DNA of 64,000 bases, from assembly GCF_001514065.1 (NCBI RefSeq), contig NZ_KQ948428.1:313525-377524 (forward strand), read 5' to 3'. Below the pieces are notes generated by a model that did not search any database, was not told the DNA's origin, and was given only the letters and a program-made list of their open reading frames with translations. This document shows, one piece after another, positions 11,566-18,324 of this stretch. Positions within the stretch are counted from its first letter, which is position 1; the number at the start of each line of letters is the position of its first letter. The position numbers and the translations under genes are program-made. This DNA is from Streptomyces antibioticus (GTDB lineage Bacteria; Actinomycetota; Actinomycetes; Streptomycetales; Streptomycetaceae).

Positions 11566-11949
11566 ATGACCGAATTCAGCGAGGCCGAACGCGCGTATCT
11601 GAGGTCGCAGCGGCTGGGGCGGCTCGCCACCGTCGATCCGCAGGGGCAGCCACAGGCGAACCCGGTCGGCTTCTTCCCGCAGGACGACGGGACGATCCTG
11701 GTCGGGGGCCACCAGATGGGCCGCAGCAAGAAGTGGCGCAACCTGCGGCAGAACCCGAAGGTCGCGCTCGTCGTCGACGACGTCGTCAGCCTGCGGCCCT
11801 GGAAGGTGCGGGGCATCGACATCCGCGGGGAGGCCGAGCTGCTGGTGGGCCCGCACGGACTGGGCGCACACTTCAGCGAGGAGGTCATCCGCATCCATCC
11901 GCGGCGGATCCACAGCTGGGGTCTAGAGGACGCCCTCGAGGGTCAGTAG
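11566..11949 (+). CDS. PPOX-class F420-dependent oxidoreductase-like protein
   Basis: 127 residues with the split-barrel flavin/F420 binding fold: FSEAERAYLRSQRLGRLATVDPQGQPQANPVGF at the start, then GGHQMGRSKKWRNLRQNPKVALVVDD, which carries the basic cofactor-phosphate contacts. The C-terminus (IRIHPRRIHSWGL) is typical of the PPOX-class F420 family in actinobacteria. It likely reduces an unknown substrate using F420H2 or flavin. The ATG at 11566 begins the conserved region. The last 27 bp overlap the end of the convergent ogt gene. Confidence 0.88.
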   Translation: MTEFSEAERAYLRSQRLGRLATVDPQGQPQANPVGFFPQDDGTILVGGHQMGRSKKWRNLRQNPKVALVVDDVVSLRPWKVRGIDIRGEAELLVGPHGLGAHFSEEVIRIHPRRIHSWGLEDALEGQ

Positions 11950-12405
11950 CGCGGTCTTGCGCTCCAGCCCGCCCGCGTACCCGGTCATGGCCCCGTTCGC
12001 GCCGATCACCCGGTGGCAGGGCCGGACGATCAGCAGCGGGTTGGCGCCGATGGCACCGCCGACCGCCCTTACGGCGACCCTCGACGCCCCGATACGGGCG
12101 GCGATCTCGCCGTAGGTGACCGTCGCCCCGTAGGGAACGTCGTCGAGCGCGGCCCAGACCCGTTCCCGGAAAGCCGTGCCCTCGGCCCGCAACTCCAGCC
12201 GGAACTCCTTGAGTTCCCCGGCGAAGTAGGCGTCGAGCTGCTCCTGGGCGGCACGGAAGGGACCCGGATCCCGCCGCCAACTCGCCTGCACCACACGCCC
12301 GTTCTTCTGTCCGGGAACGGACAGGGAGGTGAGCGCGCCATCCGGCTCGGCGGTGAGCAGCAGCGGCCCGACCGGGCTTTCGACGGTCGTCCAGTAGAGG
12401 GTCAT
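11923..12405 (-). CDS. ogt: Methylated-DNA--protein-cysteine S-methyltransferase
   Basis: 160 residues, normal size for Ogt/AGT. The active-site signature is intact in IVRPCHRVIGANG, where the cysteine accepts the alkyl group from O6-alkylguanine in a suicide reaction. The N-terminal beta-domain begins MTLYWTTVESPVGPLLL. The HTH region (PYGATVTYGEIAARIG, then AVRAVGGAIGANP with the arginine finger) is present. The start codon overlaps the stop of the upstream Ada-AlkA gene by ATGA, so the two are probably translationally coupled and co-induced by methylation damage. The 3' end overlaps the convergent PPOX gene by 27 bp. Confidence 0.95.
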   Translation of the reverse strand: MTLYWTTVESPVGPLLLTAEPDGALTSLSVPGQKNGRVVQASWRRDPGPFRAAQEQLDAYFAGELKEFRLELRAEGTAFRERVWAALDDVPYGATVTYGEIAARIGASRVAVRAVGGAIGANPLLIVRPCHRVIGANGAMTGYAGGLERKTALLTLEGVL

Positions 12406-13754
12406 CGGTGCTCCAACTCCCCTGCTGCGCGCAGGTGTTGCAGGGCGTACGAGCGCCAGGGGCGCCAGCTGTCGGGGAGGTCGAGGCCGGGCGGGGCGAC
12501 GTCCGGGTCGCCGAGGGCGCGGGTGCGGATCACGGCGACCGTGCGGGCGTCCATGCCGGGGAGGGCGAGCAGGGCGGCCTGCGCGTCGTCGCGGTCGGCG
12601 CCCGGGTCGAGCCGTACGGCACCGTCGGCAAGGGCTGCGGCGAGGGTGGCGACGGGACCGTCGGCCTGGGCGAGGGCGGCGGCCTCGGGGAAGAGGTGCG
12701 TGAGGCTGCCGCAGGGCGCGTCGAGGGCCTTGCCGTACCGCTGCACGAGCCGCTCGGCCTCGTCCGTCCCGACGAGTGCCCGCACCGCGAGCTCCTCGGG
12801 ATCGGCCGCCCCGGGTGACCGCAGCCCGGGCCGGGCGGCGACCAGCGGAGCGAGCGTCGGATCGGCGCCGAGCCGCTCGTCGACGGCGTACGGATCGGCG
12901 TCGAGGTCGAACAGCCGGCGCAGTCGGCCCACGGCCGTCGTCAGATCGCGCAGGTCGGTGAGGTGCAACCGGGCGTCGAGCCAGCCCCGGGGCCGCTCGT
13001 CGACGGCGACGATCCCGGTGCCGTACGGCAGCCGCAGGGTCCGTCGGTAGACCCGCCTCCCGGGAGCCCCGCTGACCTCCTCGACACCCGGTACGGCCTC
13101 GGCGGCCAGGACGTCGAAGACGGCGGAGGACTGGTAGGCGCCCCGGTAGGCGAGCCGCAGCGGCACCCCGGCCGACGGGGTGGCCGTACGACGCGCGCCG
13201 GGGGCGGCGGCGCGCAGCTCGCTCGGTGTCGAGGCATACACGGTGCGGATCGTGTCGTTGAACTGCCGCACGCTGGCGAATCCGGCGGCAAAGGCCACCT
13301 GCGTGACCGGCAGCTCGGTGGTCTGGAGCAGGATGCGTGCCGTGTGCGAGCGCTGGGCCCGGGCGAGGGCGACGGGCCCGGCGCCGAGCTCGGCGGTGAG
13401 CTGCCGCTGGACCTGCCGGGCGCTGTATCCCAGCCGCCCGGCGAGCCCGGCGACGCCCTCACGGTCGACGACCCCGTCCCCGATCAGCCGCATCGCCCGC
13501 CCGACCACATCGGCCCGCACGTTCCATTCCGCCGACCCCGGCACGGCATCCGGCCGACACCGCCGACAGGCCCGGAACCCCGAGCCCTGAGCGGCGGCGG
13601 CGGTCGCGAAGAACCGCACGTTCCGCCGCTTCGGCGTGACGGCAGGACAGCTGGGCCGGCAGTAGATCCCGGTGGTGGAGACGGCGAAGAAGAACTCCCC
13701 GTCGAACCTCCCGTCCCGGCTGCGCACGGCTTCGTACCTGGTGTCTTCGTCCAT
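12402..13754 (-). CDS. Ada-AlkA fusion: methyl-phosphotriester sensor/activator plus 3-methyladenine DNA glycosylase
   Basis: 450 residues from the ATG ending at 13754 (MDEDTRYEAVRSRDGRFDG); the frame runs further upstream but the Ada domain starts here. Residues 1-70 are the Ada zinc domain with four cysteines: Cys32 and Cys36 (GIYCRPSCP), Cys63 and Cys66 (RACRRC). Cys32 is the expected methyl acceptor. Residues about 85-165 are an AraC-type HTH. From about 180 to the end is an AlkA-like glycosylase with a helix-hairpin-helix (LLALPGMDARTVAVI) and a downstream acidic stretch (GDPDVAPPG) where the catalytic Asp is expected. It should sense methyl phosphotriesters, activate the operon and excise alkylated bases. 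It lacks the O6-methylguanine transferase half of E. coli Ada, which the adjacent ogt supplies. Confidence 0.93.
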   Translation of the reverse strand: MDEDTRYEAVRSRDGRFDGEFFFAVSTTGIYCRPSCPAVTPKRRNVRFFATAAAAQGSGFRACRRCRPDAVPGSAEWNVRADVVGRAMRLIGDGVVDREGVAGLAGRLGYSARQVQRQLTAELGAGPVALARAQRSHTARILLQTTELPVTQVAFAAGFASVRQFNDTIRTVYASTPSELRAAAPGARRTATPSAGVPLRLAYRGAYQSSAVFDVLAAEAVPGVEEVSGAPGRRVYRRTLRLPYGTGIVAVDERPRGWLDARLHLTDLRDLTTAVGRLRRLFDLDADPYAVDERLGADPTLAPLVAARPGLRSPGAADPEELAVRALVGTDEAERLVQRYGKALDAPCGSLTHLFPEAAALAQADGPVATLAAALADGAVRLDPGADRDDAQAALLALPGMDARTVAVIRTRALGDPDVAPPGLDLPDSWRPWRSYALQHLRAAGELEHR

Positions 13755-13826
13755 CACAGGTTCCAGTGTCGTCCAGGGACGAAGACGCGGCTGGCGGATT
13801 TCAGACACGGCACTGATGAGGCTCTC

Positions 13827-13848
13827 GGGGGCGCGGGGAACTGCGCGA
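13827..13848. repeat. Dispersed intergenic repeat element (copy 1)
   Basis: The core GGGGCGCGGGGAACTGCGCG here recurs at 45935-45955, and its first half at 53807-53817. All three copies lie between genes. This core is common in streptomycete intergenic DNA as I know it. It is GC-rich and can form hairpins, but its role is unsettled. The rest of the 150-bp gap between the RsgA stop and the Ada-AlkA start shows no gene. Confidence 0.55.
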
Positions 13849-13903
13849 GCAACCACGAGTCACCCGCACCCGCCGAACAACCGACCCGGCACCCCCGTAG
13901 GCG

Positions 13904-15010
13904 TTAAGCCCACCGCCCCCGCTTGACCTCCATCGCCGCCTTCCCCTCAGCCCCCCTCTTCTTCCACTCCCGCCGAAGCTCCGCACGGACCCGCGCATCG
14001 GTCTTGGCGACGATCCGCTGGTTCTCCCGGATCAGCTTCCGATAGCTCTCCAGCCGCCGCTCGGCCAGCTCACCGGAGTCGATCGCGGCGAGCACCGCGC
14101 ACCCCGGCTCGCTCTCGTGCGCGCAGTCGTGGAACCGGCAGTCCCCGGCAAGCTCCTCGATCTCGGAGAAGACCTGCCCGACGCCGCTCTCGGCGTCGAA
14201 GAGCCCGACCCCCCGCAGTCCGGGCGTGTCGATGAGAACGCCCCCGCCGGGCAGGGCGAGCAGGTTGCGGGTGGTGGTGGTGTGCCGTCCCTTCCCGTCG
14301 ACGTCACGGGCGGCCTGGACCGTCATGACATCCGAGCCGACGAGAGCGTTGGCCAGCGTCGACTTCCCGGCGCCGGACTGCCCGAGGAGCACGGACGTAC
14401 CGCCGGAGGCCACCGCGGCGAGGACGTCGAGCCCGTCCCCGTCCAGGGCGCTGACGGTCAGCACCGGCACTCCCGGCGCCGTGGTCTCCACGTCCTGGAC
14501 GAGATGCGCGAGCGTCACGGCGTCCGGGACGAGGTCGGCCTTGGTGAGCACGACGACGGGCTGGGCGCCGCTCTCCCAGGCGAGGGCGAGGAAGCGCTCG
14601 ATGCGGCCGAGGTCGAGTTCGACGGCCAGCGACACGGCGACGATCGCGTGGTCGACGTTGGCGGCGAGGATCTGCCCCTCGGACCGCTTGGAGGAGGTGG
14701 AGCGCACGAAGGCGGTACGGCGCGGCAGATACGTCCGTACGTAACGCGGGTTGCCGCCGGGTTCGACGGCGACCCAGTCGCCGGTGCACACGACCCGCAG
14801 TGGGTCGTGCGGGGTGACGAAGGCGGTGTCGGCGCGCAGTGTCCCGTCGGCGGTGACGACGTCGCACTGTCCGCGGTCGACGCGGACGACCCGCCCGGCG
14901 AGCAGTCCTTCGGCGTCGTAGGGGGCGAACTCGTCCGCCCATGCGTCGTCCCAGCCGTAGGGAGCGAGCGCGGAGAAAACAGAAGAAGAGGTGGAGCTCG
15001 AGGAAGTCAA
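13904..15010 (-). CDS. rsgA: Ribosome small-subunit-dependent GTPase A (RsgA/YjeQ type)
   Basis: 368 residues from the TTG ending at 15010, chosen because GAAGGG lies 7 bases upstream; another TTG ten codons earlier has no ribosome site. The GTPase motifs are circularly permuted, the hallmark of this family: G4 (TKAD, about 157-160) precedes G1 (GQSGAGKST, about 210-218), and G3 (DTPG) comes at about 261. An N-terminal OB-fold segment (VVRVDRGQCDVVTADG) precedes them. A C-terminal zinc knuckle follows: Cys291, Cys296, His298 and Cys304 (CRFHDCAHESEPGC). RsgA helps late 30S subunit assembly. In streptomycetes a different RsgA usually sits beside aroA; this one has no such neighbour and is probably the second paralogue. 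A small upstream reading frame and a palindrome over the ribosome site suggest translational control. Confidence 0.93.
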   Translation of the reverse strand: MTSSSSTSSSVFSALAPYGWDDAWADEFAPYDAEGLLAGRVVRVDRGQCDVVTADGTLRADTAFVTPHDPLRVVCTGDWVAVEPGGNPRYVRTYLPRRTAFVRSTSSKRSEGQILAANVDHAIVAVSLAVELDLGRIERFLALAWESGAQPVVVLTKADLVPDAVTLAHLVQDVETTAPGVPVLTVSALDGDGLDVLAAVASGGTSVLLGQSGAGKSTLANALVGSDVMTVQAARDVDGKGRHTTTTRNLLALPGGGVLIDTPGLRGVGLFDAESGVGQVFSEIEELAGDCRFHDCAHESEPGCAVLAAIDSGELAERRLESYRKLIRENQRIVAKTDARVRAELRREWKKRGAEGKAAMEVKRGRWA

Positions 15011-15016
15011 GGGTGA

Positions 15017-15028
15017 CCCTTCGAAGGG
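15017..15028. promoter_or_regulatory. Perfect palindrome overlapping rsgA ribosome-binding site
   Basis: CCCTTCGAAGGG is a perfect 12-bp palindrome. On the minus strand its second half (GAAGGG) is the likely Shine-Dalgarno sequence for the TTG start ending at 15010. It could bind a protein, or in RNA bring two transcripts together; a hairpin alone is unlikely because there is no loop. Confidence 0.4.
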
Positions 15029-15055
15029 CGGCCCCGGCAAGGAAGTTGAGTGAGG

Positions 15056-15124
15056 TCAGCCGGTGGCCGCGGAGGTGGACGTGATGATCTGGATGCGGGC
15101 AGTGCTCATCGCAGTGACAGCCAT
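15056..15124 (-). CDS. Possible 22-residue leader peptide upstream of rsgA
   Basis: An ATG ending at 15124, preceded by GGAGGTG at a good distance (6 bases after), opens a 22-codon frame MAVTAMSTARIQ... ending in TSAATG and a TGA. It is rich in Ala, Thr, Ser and Ile, with no cysteine, tryptophan or run of one amino acid that would suggest a classical attenuator. It ends 45 bases before the rsgA TTG start. The strong ribosome site is the main support; the peptide matches nothing I know. Confidence 0.4.
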   Translation of the reverse strand: MAVTAMSTARIQIITSTSAATG

Positions 15125-15222
15125 CGGTCGACACCTCCTCGAAAACACTCACTCGGCCAGCCCGTCCGGCTGGAACATCCACACCGTATCCGGGACACCC
15201 TCGGCCCCGTCAACCGAATTAA

Positions 15223-16710
15223 TCAGGCCTTCGCGCAGGCCTGCCCGTTCAACGTCACGTCGTACCCCGGCGAGTTCGTCCCCTGCCAGGAGGCGATGAA
15301 GCCGAAGGCGAAGTCGGCGCCCGCCGCGACGGTCCTGTTGTAGTCGGCGGCGGAGGCGGTGACACGGGAGCCGCTCTGGGAGAAGTTCCCGTCCCACATC
15401 TCGCCGACCTGCTGGCCGTCCTTGAAGGACCAGGCGACCCGCCAGTCGTCGAGGGCGTCCTCGGTGGTGACGGTCACGGTGGCCTGGAAACCGTCGGGCC
15501 ACTGGTTGACGAGCGTGTACTTGTACGTGCAGGCGGCGCGTGCGGTCGTCGGGCCCGGCGCCGGCTTGTCGTCGTCCTGCGCGGCGGAGGACTTGGTGCC
15601 CTGGGGTTCGGGGTCGGGGTTCCTCCGGGTGGGCGAGCCCTGGGTGGCGCTGGCGGAGGGGGTCTTGGAGCCCGACGGTGTGGCGCTCGCGGACGGCAGG
15701 GTGGTGCCGGGGTCGGCCGCGACGGGCTGGCGGTCGGCGGAGTCGCCAGGGGGCGCGGCGCCGTCGTCCATGCCGCCCTTGCCGAAGGGCATCATCGAGA
15801 CGCCGAGGGCCAGCAACGACACCAGTACGGCGGTGACGAGGAGGCTGTTGCGCACGACCCGCGCCTTCTGCGCACCGGGGTTCGGCGGCCCGGCGTCGAC
15901 CGGTTCCGGGCGTCCGGCGCCCAGCCGCACCTCGGCGGCGCGGCGCCGGCGCTCCAGGTAGGCGAGGCCGCCCCAGCCGATGACCCCGCCGGCGAGGGCC
16001 GCGGGCAGCCCGCCGCCGTGCAGCCGCAGACAGGCGGCGGCCTCGGCGCACTGCACGCAGGTGGCGAGGTGCCGGGAGAGGTCCTCGGGGGTGTCGGCGC
16101 CGGCGGACCGGGTGACCGCGTCGAGGAGCCGGGCGTAGCTGCGGCACTGCGCGGCCATCGGGGTGTCGAGGTGGTTGCGGTGGCTGCGGTCCCTGAACAG
16201 GCCGCGCACCTGGGCGAGTTCCTCGGACACGGTGGCCGGGTCGAGGCCGAGCCGGCGGGCCACCACGGACAGCGGCAGTGCCTCGACCTCGGCCAGCCAG
16301 AGCAGGTCGGCGTCGTGTTCCTGCATGTCGCGCAACCCGCGCAGGGCGAGCGGGCGTTGGAGCGGCGGGCCGGTGTAGCGGTCGGCCTTCTCGGAGTTGA
16401 GCCAGAGCCGCAGGTCGGGGTCGAGCTTGTGGCCCTGCCCGTCGGTCTCCCAGGCGGCCGCCGTGGTGCGCACCGCGGTCAGCAGCAGTGGGATCATGGG
16501 CAGTCGGGGCGCCCGCCGGCCGACACCGCGGCCCGGGCCCGCCTCGGCCGCCTTGACCTCGCGCATGCCGAGCGTGAAGGCCTCCGTGGACAGTTGGTTG
16601 GCCGCGGTGGACCCGGACGTGCACAGGTCGGCATAGGAGAGGACCGCGTCCCAGCACTCCGAGAACAGGGCGGCCTCGGTGGCGTCATGGGGGGTCGGCA
16701 GGTCGGGCAT
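15223..16710 (-). CDS. Transmembrane chimera: sigma-like HTH, zinc anti-sigma-like motif, membrane segment, extracellular CBM2
   Basis: 495 residues from the ATG ending at 16710 (AGGAGA 4 bases upstream). Residues 1-120 resemble the front of an ECF-type regulator, and 138-175 form a sigma-region-4-like HTH (LPLSVVARRLGLDPATVSEELAQVR). Residues 189-221 carry Cys189 and the H-xxx-C-xx-C signature His214, Cys218, Cys221 (RHLATCVQC) of zinc anti-sigma domains. A weak hydrophobic stretch at 232-251 ends in ERRRR. The convincing membrane segment is about 288-306 (SLLVTAVLVSLLALGVSMM). A Ser/Pro-rich linker leads to a CBM2-type module, 394-493, bounded by two cysteines and with the exposed-tryptophan pattern of cellulose/chitin/xylan binders (NQW, WRVAWSF, MWDGNF, SWQGT). 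It looks like a polysaccharide-sensing switch in one chain. Targets are unknown. Confidence 0.85.
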   Translation of the reverse strand: MPDLPTPHDATEAALFSECWDAVLSYADLCTSGSTAANQLSTEAFTLGMREVKAAEAGPGRGVGRRAPRLPMIPLLLTAVRTTAAAWETDGQGHKLDPDLRLWLNSEKADRYTGPPLQRPLALRGLRDMQEHDADLLWLAEVEALPLSVVARRLGLDPATVSEELAQVRGLFRDRSHRNHLDTPMAAQCRSYARLLDAVTRSAGADTPEDLSRHLATCVQCAEAAACLRLHGGGLPAALAGGVIGWGGLAYLERRRRAAEVRLGAGRPEPVDAGPPNPGAQKARVVRNSLLVTAVLVSLLALGVSMMPFGKGGMDDGAAPPGDSADRQPVAADPGTTLPSASATPSGSKTPSASATQGSPTRRNPDPEPQGTKSSAAQDDDKPAPGPTTARAACTYKYTLVNQWPDGFQATVTVTTEDALDDWRVAWSFKDGQQVGEMWDGNFSQSGSRVTASAADYNRTVAAGADFAFGFIASWQGTNSPGYDVTLNGQACAKA

Positions 16711-16924
16711 CGGTCTCCTGCATCCAGAGCGAGTCAACTCACCTTATTGGCAACGGAGTTGCGGGGAACCTCGCGACAGCGCATGAGCTTTTCACGGGTT
16801 CCACACAACTGACAAGCGGGCTATTCAAATCCGGTTACCGGGAGTCGACGAACGCCCACGTCACGTTGCCCTTGTTGTGCCTGTTGCGCCAGTTCCTCGT
16901 GGTGTCACTTCTGGATACATACGC

Positions 16925-16960
16925 AAAGAAGGCCCGGACGTCTCGATCCGGACCTTCTTT
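16925..16960 (-). terminator. Terminator downstream of radical SAM gene
   Basis: AAAGAAGG-C-CCGGA pairs with TCCGG-A-CCTTCTTT (13 paired bases, one mismatch, 8-base loop), 45 bp past the minus-strand stop at 17005. The outer A/T pairs give a short U tract in the RNA. The remaining spacer 16711-16924 (upstream of the CBM2 chimera) holds its promoter region. I see no complete gene there. Confidence 0.8.
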
Positions 16961-17004
16961 TCCGCGGGAGTCGTCGACGACCCGCCTTCCCCGAGAACCC
17001 GCGG

Positions 17005-18324
17005 CTACGCCTCGGCCGGCTCCTGCGCCGGCAGGCTGTCCATGAAGGAGCTCACGGAGAAGACCGCGCGGCCGGCGCCGGGCTCACCGTAGCCGGGGGG
17101 CGAGGAGAGGCCGAACTCCTCCATCGTCTGGCGATAGGCCTGGAGCAGCCGGATGTGGTACTCCAGCGGCGCACCCTGCGGGTTGGCCTTGCCGAGCGGG
17201 GTCGTCGGCTCCGGGCACCAGGTGGTGAAGCGGGGCGTGATGCCCTGCGACATGAAGAAGCGCAGGCCCTCCGTGGTCGAGGCGATTGCCTCGTCGACCG
17301 TCTTGAAGCCGAAGGGCTCGGCCATCTCCACGCCGGCCACGAAGTTGGGGATGACGTTGCGGGCGCCGAAGATCTCCGCCGAGTCGAGGATGCGCTTGTG
17401 CCACTCGTCGCGGCCGACGTAGCGCTCCTTGCCCGGGCAGTACATCTTGAACAGATACTCGTCCCACACCTCGTAGTTGGGGTGGTAGATCTGCACGCCG
17501 TAGTCCTTGAACCGCTGCACGTCGTCCTTGGGCAGCGCCTGGGCGACGACCTTGCCGATCCAGCGGCCCGGGAAGCGCTCCTCGATGGCCTTCGCGTAGT
17601 GGCCGTAGAAGTCGGCCTCGTCGCGCCCGGAGACGGTCTTGGTGATCGCGCCGCCGGTGAGCGTGTACGCGGTCGACGCCTTCTGGGTGTCGTACCGGTC
17701 GATGATCTCCAGGGCTTCGAGGACCTCCTCGACGTCCTTCACACCCGTGTACGGCCGGCCCGCCGCCTTGTGCTGGCGCCAGTTGTGGTTGATGTCGCAG
17801 TACTGGCACTCCTCCTTGGCGCCGAAGTACTGGCACACCCGGAAGACCGTCAGATAGATGAGGTAGCCCCACTGGATGGTCGGGGCGACCTCCATCACGG
17901 ACTTCCCGTTGGAGAGCTTGTGCTTGTAGTACTCCGGCATCGGCGGCACACCGACGTCGGCGATCCGCTTGCCGTCGAGGTAGAGGCCGAGCATGCCGCT
18001 GTCGTCGGCGGCGACGCGGTACGGCGAGGCCGGGTTCACGCGCACGGAGACGACGGTGCGGCGCAGGTCGTACGGCCCGCCGGTGAGGATGATCTCCTCC
18101 GGCGGGCGGCGCAGCGCGGCCTCGCCGAGCTCGGGGAGGGTGCCGTGGTCGAAGGAGAAGATGAAGTACGACTTCGGCTTGACCTCACCGCCCTCGTTGT
18201 CACTGAGGGCGGACGGGTCGAAGGCCACCCCGCCCCGGAGCAGATCCTCCTTGAAGACGGCCTCCCGCGGTACGTGCGGGAACCTCTCCATCAGATCTTC
18301 GACCAGCGCGGTACGGCTGCCCAT
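17005..18324 (-). CDS. Radical SAM enzyme with expanded CX8CX2C cluster motif
   Basis: 439 residues, ATG ending at 18324 with GGAGGAG 7 bases upstream. The iron-sulfur site is Cys164, Cys173, Cys176 (RVCQYFGAKEECQYC), spaced C-x8-C-x2-C instead of the canonical C-x3-C-x2-C; the hydrophobic residue before the last Cys is aromatic, as in the family. The glycine-rich SAM-contact strand may be TAYTLTGGAI, and a beta strand with IGKVVAQALPKDD follows. Further cysteines at MYCPGKERY and WCPEPTTPLG could hold a second site. The first 160 residues are an N-terminal extension of unknown function. I recognise it as a conserved streptomycete radical SAM protein of unknown substrate. There is no precursor-peptide gene beside it, so a RiPP role is unsupported. 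Confidence 0.88.
   Translation of the reverse strand: MGSRTALVEDLMERFPHVPREAVFKEDLLRGGVAFDPSALSDNEGGEVKPKSYFIFSFDHGTLPELGEAALRRPPEEIILTGGPYDLRRTVVSVRVNPASPYRVAADDSGMLGLYLDGKRIADVGVPPMPEYYKHKLSNGKSVMEVAPTIQWGYLIYLTVFRVCQYFGAKEECQYCDINHNWRQHKAAGRPYTGVKDVEEVLEALEIIDRYDTQKASTAYTLTGGAITKTVSGRDEADFYGHYAKAIEERFPGRWIGKVVAQALPKDDVQRFKDYGVQIYHPNYEVWDEYLFKMYCPGKERYVGRDEWHKRILDSAEIFGARNVIPNFVAGVEMAEPFGFKTVDEAIASTTEGLRFFMSQGITPRFTTWCPEPTTPLGKANPQGAPLEYHIRLLQAYRQTMEEFGLSSPPGYGEPGAGRAVFSVSSFMDSLPAQEPAEA

What the first reader, a model, noticed from the sequence alone, without database searches (positions are those of the whole stretch)
15223..16710. Sigma-like HTH, zinc anti-sigma motif, membrane helix and CBM2 in one protein
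The chain carries a sigma-4-like HTH and an HxxxCxxC zinc motif inside the cell and a polysaccharide-binding CBM2 outside. Clostridial cellulose sensing uses separate SigI and RsgI proteins, with the binding module on the anti-sigma. Here both halves seem fused, which would be a different design for sensing plant or fungal polysaccharide.
Basis: partly seen in the sequence, partly recalled or inferred. Interest (0 to 1): 0.72.

Follow-up and report, generated by a model that had tools for sequence, protein, structure and literature searches.

The report
Cellulose-binding receptor with sigma-factor-like core
A Streptomyces membrane protein joins an outward cellulose-binding-type domain to an inward, remodelled sigma factor with its own zinc anti-sigma; this fusion design is already known (ECF52 sigma factors), but here much of the usual positive DNA-contact charge has gone while the domain stays conserved.

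Summary
What is unusual is that this protein is not an ordinary ECF52. With ricin-lectin paralogues it forms a separate group (branch support 100/99). Its sigma parts score under Pfam and TIGR02937 cut-offs. Net positive charge in region 2.4 and in the region 4.2 helix is lower in each of 120 clade members than in any of 30 ECF52 proteins, yet the cytoplasmic part is under stronger purifying selection than the CBM2. Presence goes with the cellulase GH48 (53 of 60 genomes, against 39 of 90), not with chitinase GH19. Most likely it is a surface receptor for a cellulose-like polymer whose output may be protein-protein (PhyR-like) rather than promoter recognition.

The parts
15223..16710 (-). whole gene, 495 aa plus stop: sigma2-sigma4-ZAS-TM-linker-CBM2 protein
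16411..16683 (-). sigma-2-like region, residues about 10-100 (region 2.2 near 36-46, region 2.4 near 81-97)
   Evidence: profile alignment to 20 ordinary ECF sigma factors over 9-174; dN/dS 0.22 for 10-92
16165..16356 (-). sigma-4-like region with HTH, residues 119-182
   Evidence: dN/dS 0.25
16015..16152 (-). zinc anti-sigma (ZAS)-like domain, residues 187-232, ligands C189 H214 C218 C221
   Evidence: ligands invariant in 35 of 35 rows
15943..16014 (-). hydrophobic stretch after the zinc site, residues 233-256, most constrained part, not predicted to span the membrane
   Evidence: dN/dS 0.05; insertion score +3.4 for 233-251
15784..15855 (-). membrane helix, residues 286-309 (core 289-307)
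15547..15783 (-). Ser/Thr/Pro-rich linker, residues 310-388, variable
   Evidence: dN/dS 0.68
15235..15531 (-). CBM2, residues 394-492, with conserved C394/C492 and W404, W439, Y457
16711..16820 (-). conserved upstream (promoter/5' leader) region of about 110 bases
   Evidence: 122 unique orthologous upstream sequences aligned
16925..16960 (-). hairpin followed by T-rich end, probable terminator of the upstream radical SAM gene, so the gene likely has its own promoter
   Evidence: read by eye from the sequence; the consensus scan listed this stem on the + strand only, and one such site is near the 0.7 expected by chance

Best explanation
It is a one-chain surface receptor for a cellulose-like polysaccharide, descended from an ECF52-like fused sigma/anti-sigma protein. 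Shown by sequence: a sigma2-sigma4 module, an adjoining ZAS-type zinc site, one membrane helix, a long linker and a CBM2 predicted outside. Inferred: CBM2 docks on cellulose (or a similar polymer), and tension or proteolysis across the membrane frees or reshapes the sigma-ZAS module. Inferred and least sure: that module does not recognise -35/-10 promoter elements in the ordinary way, because its DNA-contact surfaces are remodelled; it more likely works by binding another protein (an anti-sigma, another ECF such as the resident ECF52, or RNA polymerase), as the degenerate sigma-like domain of PhyR does. Stepwise confidence: architecture and ECF52 relationship 0.95; surface polysaccharide receptor 0.75; non-canonical (pseudo-sigma) output 0.5.
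For: Homology: the clade-only profile A2 run over this genome (E<=1, 7 matches; 150 of 215 first-look candidates scored) finds its own gene, the four ricin paralogues, the ECF52-type gene L066 at E 2.5e-20 (residues 8-250, ahead of one ricin paralogue) and the ECF+ZAS gene L068 at 2.4e-7, and no other ECF gene. hhalign to ECF52: E 1.6e-16 (2 rows) and 9.8e-19 (30 rows). Zinc ligands invariant. Topology. CBM2 cysteines and aromatic places: C394, W404, W439 in 119 of 119, Y457 in 118 of 119, C492 in 119 of 120 rows with letters there (122 aligned). Remodelled contacts: net charge of region 2.4 (81-97) is -5..+2 in 120 clade members, +3..+5 in 30 ECF52, +1..+6 in 20 ordinary ECFs; of the region 4.2 helix (160-173) -1..+1, against +2..+4 and +1..+6. 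Position 167: Arg in 30 of 30 ECF52 and 17 of 20 ECFs, Gln in 109 of 120. Position 164: Glu in 120 of 120, Leu in 30 of 30 ECF52. Position 39 (region 2.2): Asp in 30 of 30 and 19 of 20, Gln in 90 of 120. Constraint: median dN/dS sigma2 0.22, sigma4 0.25, ZAS 0.22, CBM2 0.48, linker 0.68. Cellulose link: GH48 in 53 of 60 genomes with the orthologue and 39 of 90 without; GH19 in 47 of 60 and 77 of 90.
Against: No experiment and no structure. Not all basic residues are lost: R81 and R173 are kept in 120 of 120, R169 in 116. Charge ranges overlap with ordinary ECFs at the edge: 4 of 20 ECFs have +1 or +2 in region 2.4 where 8 of 120 clade members do, and 1 of 20 has +1 in the 4.2 helix where 9 of 120 do. 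Whole sigma-4 charge (119-182) equals that of ECF52 (-1.31 against -1.20), and 144-182 is more positive here (+0.80 against -0.87; R175 in 119, R178 in 120 of 120), so DNA binding by another surface is not excluded. E43 of region 2.2 is kept in 119 of 120 (all). Purifying selection on the sigma parts fits an active sigma factor equally well. The GH48 link is not corrected for shared ancestry, and 7 of 60 genomes lack GH48. Profile A2 alone finds no PDB sequence below E 1.
Confidence: 0.5

Rival explanations
1. A working ECF52-like sigma factor with changed promoter specificity: the CBM2 binds cellulose, the ZAS part is removed by proteolysis, and the freed sigma directly transcribes cellulase and other genes, as proposed for ECF52.
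For: Whole architecture as ECF52; strong purifying selection on the sigma parts; R81, E43, R173, R175, R178 kept in 119-120 of 120; conserved upstream region that could hold an own promoter.
Against: Arg at 167 of the recognition helix replaced by Gln in 109 of 120, Glu at 164 in all 120, and region 2.4 lowered in charge. The conserved upstream element TTGTCAGTTGTGTGG has one exact match in the genome, its own gene; of the 12 further sites with 1-2 mismatches I looked at 9 and saw no shared second element, so no regulon was seen; a regulon with another motif was not searched for.
Confidence: 0.33
2. An anti-sigma acting in trans: the ZAS part binds another ECF (for example the resident ECF52) and the sigma-like part is a decoy that fills its own ZAS until the signal arrives.
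For: ZAS ligands invariant; an ECF52-type gene matched in 56 of 61 genomes, so a partner is nearly always there; PhyR precedent (passages).
Against: No interaction evidence; no ECF gene seen next door: the conserved neighbour is a radical SAM gene.
Confidence: 0.15
3. A passive cell-surface anchor: the CBM2 tethers hyphae to cellulose and the cytoplasmic part is a leftover of an ECF52-like ancestor.
For: Sigma parts of the window protein are below Pfam detection; a membrane- or wall-anchored cellulose-binding protein is known in Streptomyces reticuli (AbpS, recalled, not searched).
Against: The cytoplasmic part is more constrained than the CBM2 (dN/dS about 0.22-0.25 against 0.48; 233-256 at 0.05) and the zinc ligands are invariant, which a leftover would not show.
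Confidence: 0.1

Closest known systems
ECF52 sigma factors, SCO4117 of Streptomyces coelicolor (PMC5826349, PMC8999054; passages read)
   Same: Sigma2, sigma4, zinc finger, membrane helix, Pro-rich linker and carbohydrate-binding domain in one chain; homologous to the ECF52-type gene L066 of this genome over residues 8-250, with the same VIGW stretch after the zinc site.
   Different: CBM2 instead of NPCBM; sigma parts below Pfam and TIGR02937 detection; DNA-contact columns changed; separate group in the tree (100/99); in 60 of 150 genomes, whereas the ECF52-type gene matched in 56 of 61. L066 is called SCO4117-like by its domains and near-universal single copy; the SCO4117 sequence itself was not compared.
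Ricin-lectin paralogues of the same group (L009-L012 in this genome; Ricin_B_lectin in 24 of 27 relatives scanned)
   Same: Same cytoplasmic half and zinc site, membrane helix, lectin-type outer module; region 2.4 also lacks net positive charge (-3..+1 in 25).
   Different: Ricin B trefoil instead of CBM2; the region 4.2 helix keeps more charge (-2..+4); region 2.2 Glu lost (Ala in 22 of 25).
ECF53-like fusions in the same genome (L063 with a glycosidase catalytic core, L065 with AbfB)
   Same: ECF sigma, HxxxCxxC, hydrophobic stretch and a carbohydrate-active outer domain in one chain.
   Different: Sigma70_r2 match over cut-off; unrelated outer domains. The label ECF53 rests on literature descriptions and was not tested.
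SigI/RsgI of Clostridium thermocellum
   Same: Polysaccharide-binding module outside, sigma control inside (works alike).
   Different: Two separate proteins and another sigma type (abstracts in the listing and general knowledge).
PhyR of Alphaproteobacteria (PMC8103513; passages read)
   Same: Sigma-like domain with degenerate promoter- and RNA-polymerase-contact regions.
   Different: Response regulator that binds NepR; no ZAS, membrane helix or CBM.

Membership tests
ECF52 (SCO4117 type) | ECF sigma domain recognised as such (sigma2 and sigma4) | tested here: inconclusive
   Homologous by profile but no Pfam sigma family at E<=10 and TIGR02937 only 11 bits, cut-off 42.9. The ECF52-type L066 passes TIGR02937 (58.5) and Sigma70_r2, but its own Sigma70_r4_2 and zf-HC2 scores are also under the Pfam cut-offs.
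ECF52 (SCO4117 type) | Zinc-finger (ZAS) domain after sigma4 | tested here: met
   C189, H214, C218, C221 invariant in 35 of 35 rows.
ECF52 (SCO4117 type) | Membrane helix and Pro-rich linker | tested here: met
   sequence.
ECF52 (SCO4117 type) | Carbohydrate-binding domain at the C-terminus | tested here: met
   CBM_2 E 9.5e-26; the module differs from the NPCBM of L066.
ECF52 (SCO4117 type) | Falls inside the ECF52 clade | tested here: not met
   Tree of 64 rows: 47 CBM2 and ricin rows on one side of a branch with support 100/99, 17 ECF52-type and ECF rows on the other (the program says the bootstrap had not settled and warns of long branches).
functional ECF sigma factor | Basic DNA-contact surface in regions 2.4 and 4.2 | tested here: not met
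   Net charge below every one of 30 ECF52; caveats: edge overlap with ordinary ECFs, basic residues after the helix.
functional ECF sigma factor | Transcription initiation with RNA polymerase core | not testable with these tools
   Needs in vitro transcription.
class I ZAS anti-sigma | H/C-x24/25-H-x3-C-x2-C zinc site (motif recalled) before a membrane helix | tested here: met
   C189-x24-H214-x3-C218-x2-C221.
CBM2 family | Family profile match, cysteine pair and three surface aromatics (aromatics recalled) | tested here: met
   the third aromatic is Tyr instead of Trp, as at the aligned place in 3ndy.
SigI/RsgI | Separate SigI and RsgI proteins | tested here: not met
   One chain; homology shown to ECF sigma factors; SigI itself was not compared.

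The most novel reading that the evidence does not exclude
A whole group of membrane lectin receptors in Streptomyces (CBM2 and ricin forms) uses a degenerate sigma factor, fused to its own zinc anti-sigma, as an intracellular protein-binding switch and not as a transcription factor: a membrane-bound, polysaccharide-gated counterpart of PhyR sigma mimicry that feeds into the resident ECF network.
Probability: 0.4. Interest if true: 0.75.

Novelty: new variant of a known kind. Interest (0 to 1): 0.45.

Why it matters
How streptomycetes sense insoluble polymers is poorly known. This family offers one-gene receptors whose outer module hints at the ligand, and it sets ECF52-type proteins with intact DNA contacts (a gene matched in 56 of 61 genomes) beside a related group with remodelled contacts. 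Whether the second group still starts transcription is a clear, testable question about how sigma factors become signalling partners.

Tried and rejected
Second membrane helix at 233-251 that would put CBM2 inside: rejected on insertion score (+3.4; mean +3.77 over 122 orthologues), with the caveat that the scale was recalled and simplified. A regulon through the conserved upstream element: 13 sites with up to 2 mismatches in the genome against 2 for the reversed pattern; one exact, its own gene; 9 of the other 12 were looked at and showed no shared second element. Three one-mismatch sites share TTGTCAGTGGTGTGGTGCA, which looks like a different repeated element. Consensus sigma-70 promoter scan: none in 14900-17100. 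tRNA: none in the window. PDB search with the clade-only profile: nothing below E 1; the SigE match at 7.8e-9 came with A1, which contains two ECF52-type and four ricin rows, so it is not used as proof. Passive leftover: disfavoured on dN/dS. Papers: searches listed no paper that I recognised as describing a CBM2-carrying or ricin-carrying member of this group or its changed DNA contacts; the main ECF classification papers did not appear in these listings, so they may describe it.

Rows dropped and choices made: of 134 proteins taken, 122 were distinct; L075 (412 aa, frame differs after the linker), L139 and L043 (no stop before the stretch ends) are incomplete. L139 and L059 were left out of the 120 used for charge; L139, L075 and L043 out of dN/dS (Nei-Gojobori, 150 random pairs of 82-97% identity, 138-149 used per domain, pairs not independent). 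The 30 ECF52 are the best 30 of 58 matches; the 20 ordinary ECFs were chosen by hand from the 81 over the cut-off; the 25 ricin rows were the four of this genome, L062 and 20 picked from the listing. The 60 orthologue-bearing genomes were read by me (50% identity or more; G003 only over residues 1-186).

Full report
Observation. The open frame is at window 15223-16710, minus strand, 495 aa. Residues 9-174 align as a profile with 20 ordinary ECF sigma factors of the same genome (probability 94.0, E 1.5e-7), against at most 0.3 in 12 control alignments. Residues 8-250 match the genome's ECF52-type gene L066 at E 2.5e-20 when the clade profile is run over the genome. The zinc site is C189, H214, C218, C221, invariant in 35 of 35 rows. 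The membrane helix is 289-307, and the charge bias puts the N-terminus inside in 111 of 122 orthologues. CBM2 is 394-492; its nearest PDB chains are CBM2 modules of an exoglucanase/xylanase (6qfs, 1exg).

Distribution. With E<=1e-10 on the first 309 residues, 85 of 150 same-genus genomes have a relative; by my reading of that listing 60 of 150 hold the CBM2-clade orthologue (50% identity or more; G003 only over residues 1-186). In the named genome collection 208 stretches encoded a relative and the best 80 were kept; 79 are titled Streptomyces and one 'Actinobacteria bacterium'. In an order-wide draw of 147 genomes 89 had a relative at E<=1e-8, in 2 of 5 genera, the second genus only weakly (1e-10 to 1e-11). 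The 30 loci, the window's own included, all carry the protein to its CBM2 end.

Known kind. ECF52 proteins have an ECF sigma domain, zinc finger, membrane region, Pro-rich extension and carbohydrate-binding domain, are reported only from Actinobacteria, and are proposed to be activated by proteolysis or conformational change after carbohydrate sensing (PMC5826349 and PMC8999054, passages); some ECF52 and ECF53 are said to carry glycosidase and carbohydrate-binding domains, without experimental proof (PMC10766802, passages). In this genome L066 (Sigma70_r2, weak zf-HC2, NPCBM), L063 (Sigma70_r2, glycosidase core) and L065 (Sigma70_r2, AbfB) show this. L066 is called SCO4117-like by its domains and because such a gene matched in 56 of 61 genomes, nearly always as one copy; SCO4117 itself was not compared.

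What differs. A 64-row tree puts CBM2 and ricin forms (47 rows) apart from ECF52-type and ordinary ECF rows (17) with support 100/99 (bootstrap not settled, long branches present). The sigma domains of the window protein score under Pfam and TIGR02937 cut-offs. Net charge in region 2.4 and in the region 4.2 helix is lower in each of 120 clade members than in any of 30 ECF52; it overlaps slightly with the 20 ordinary ECFs. Named positions: 167 Arg to Gln (109 of 120), 164 Glu (120 of 120; Leu in 30 of 30 ECF52), 39 Asp to Gln (90 of 120). That these columns are DNA- or RNA-polymerase-contact places rests on recalled knowledge of E. coli sigma-E and other sigma factors. Against this: R81, R169 and R173 are kept (120, 116 and 120 of 120), total sigma-4 charge equals that of ECF52, and the stretch after the helix is more positive here (R175, R178), so another DNA surface is possible. 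The ricin paralogues show part of the same change (region 2.4 -3..+1; 4.2 helix -2..+4; n 25).

Constraint. Median dN/dS: sigma2 0.22, sigma4 0.25, ZAS 0.22, residues 233-256 0.05, membrane helix 0.13, linker 0.68, CBM2 0.48 (150 pairs, 138-149 used per domain). The cytoplasmic half is not decaying.

Likely ligand. The CBM2 keeps its cysteine pair and the aromatic places W404, W439 and Y457 in 118-119 of 119 rows (C492 in 119 of 120). The alignment to 1exg puts the three at Trp positions of that module; that these bind cellulose there is recalled. Genomes with the orthologue hold GH48 in 53 of 60 cases, those without in 39 of 90 (Fisher p 2e-8); GH19 shows no such link (47 of 60 and 77 of 90, p 0.28). 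In a logistic fit with genome size the orthologue coefficient stays at 2.1 (149 of 150 genomes, G121 having no size in hand). A few GH48 matches are fragments (G106, G143, G146). Shared ancestry was not corrected.

Neighbourhood. A radical SAM gene (variant_rSAM domain) lies upstream on the same strand in 80 of 80 named loci, with at most 600 bases between in 73 of 80 and up to 2353 in L087. RsgA is found in 52 of 80, 15 of the loci being shorter than 12,900 bases. A conserved region of about 110 bases precedes the start codon, behind a hairpin that may end the radical SAM transcript. By eye no cellulase gene is adjacent; the genome's GH48 is on the same contig about 280 kb away.

Mechanism. 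Shown: anatomy, homology, conservation. Inferred: cellulose-type binding outside; signal passing through the membrane helix to the sigma-ZAS module. Least certain: whether the module transcribes. PhyR shows that a sigma-like domain with degenerate promoter- and polymerase-contact regions can act by binding an anti-sigma (PMC8103513, passages); two of 29 clade members have a weak hit to the PhyR family model (best E 0.03), which I do not count as evidence. I put the pseudo-sigma output at about even odds, with an ECF sigma of altered promoter specificity as the main rival.

Verdict. The new part is a conserved, separate group with remodelled canonical DNA contacts.

Noticed in passing
17005-18324 minus: Radical SAM protein (variant_rSAM, E 2.6e-51) upstream on the same strand in 80 of 80 named loci, within 600 bases in 73; functional link to the receptor unknown.
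   Followed up: partly
L063:1930-3879 plus strand (G000:C17): ECF sigma fused through HxxxCxxC and a hydrophobic stretch to a glycosidase catalytic core (Glyco_hydro_cc, E 7.1e-50): an ECF sigma that may carry its own enzyme outside.
   Followed up: partly
L065:1900-3453 plus strand (G000:C1): ECF sigma with HxxxCxxC and an AbfB domain (E 3.1e-42).
   Followed up: partly
16711-16820: Strongly conserved upstream region with blocks TTGTCAGTTGTGTGG, CGTGAAAAGC and an inverted CAACTC...GAGTTG; no known promoter type recognised.
   Followed up: partly
L232, L233, L234: Three other genome sites share TTGTCAGTGGTGTGGTGCA, a possible repeated regulatory element.
   Followed up: no
L060, L061 (G100): One genome has two highly divergent CBM2 members of the group, on a long shared branch in the tree.
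   Followed up: no
G219:C1:5962858-5963777: An orthologue with a TGA inside, matched in two overlapping pieces: the gene may be broken in some lineages.
   Followed up: no
12402-13856 minus: Ada-like regulator joined to an AlkA-like glycosylase, next to a methylguanine methyltransferase-like gene at 11923-12405 (named from sequence by eye).
   Followed up: no
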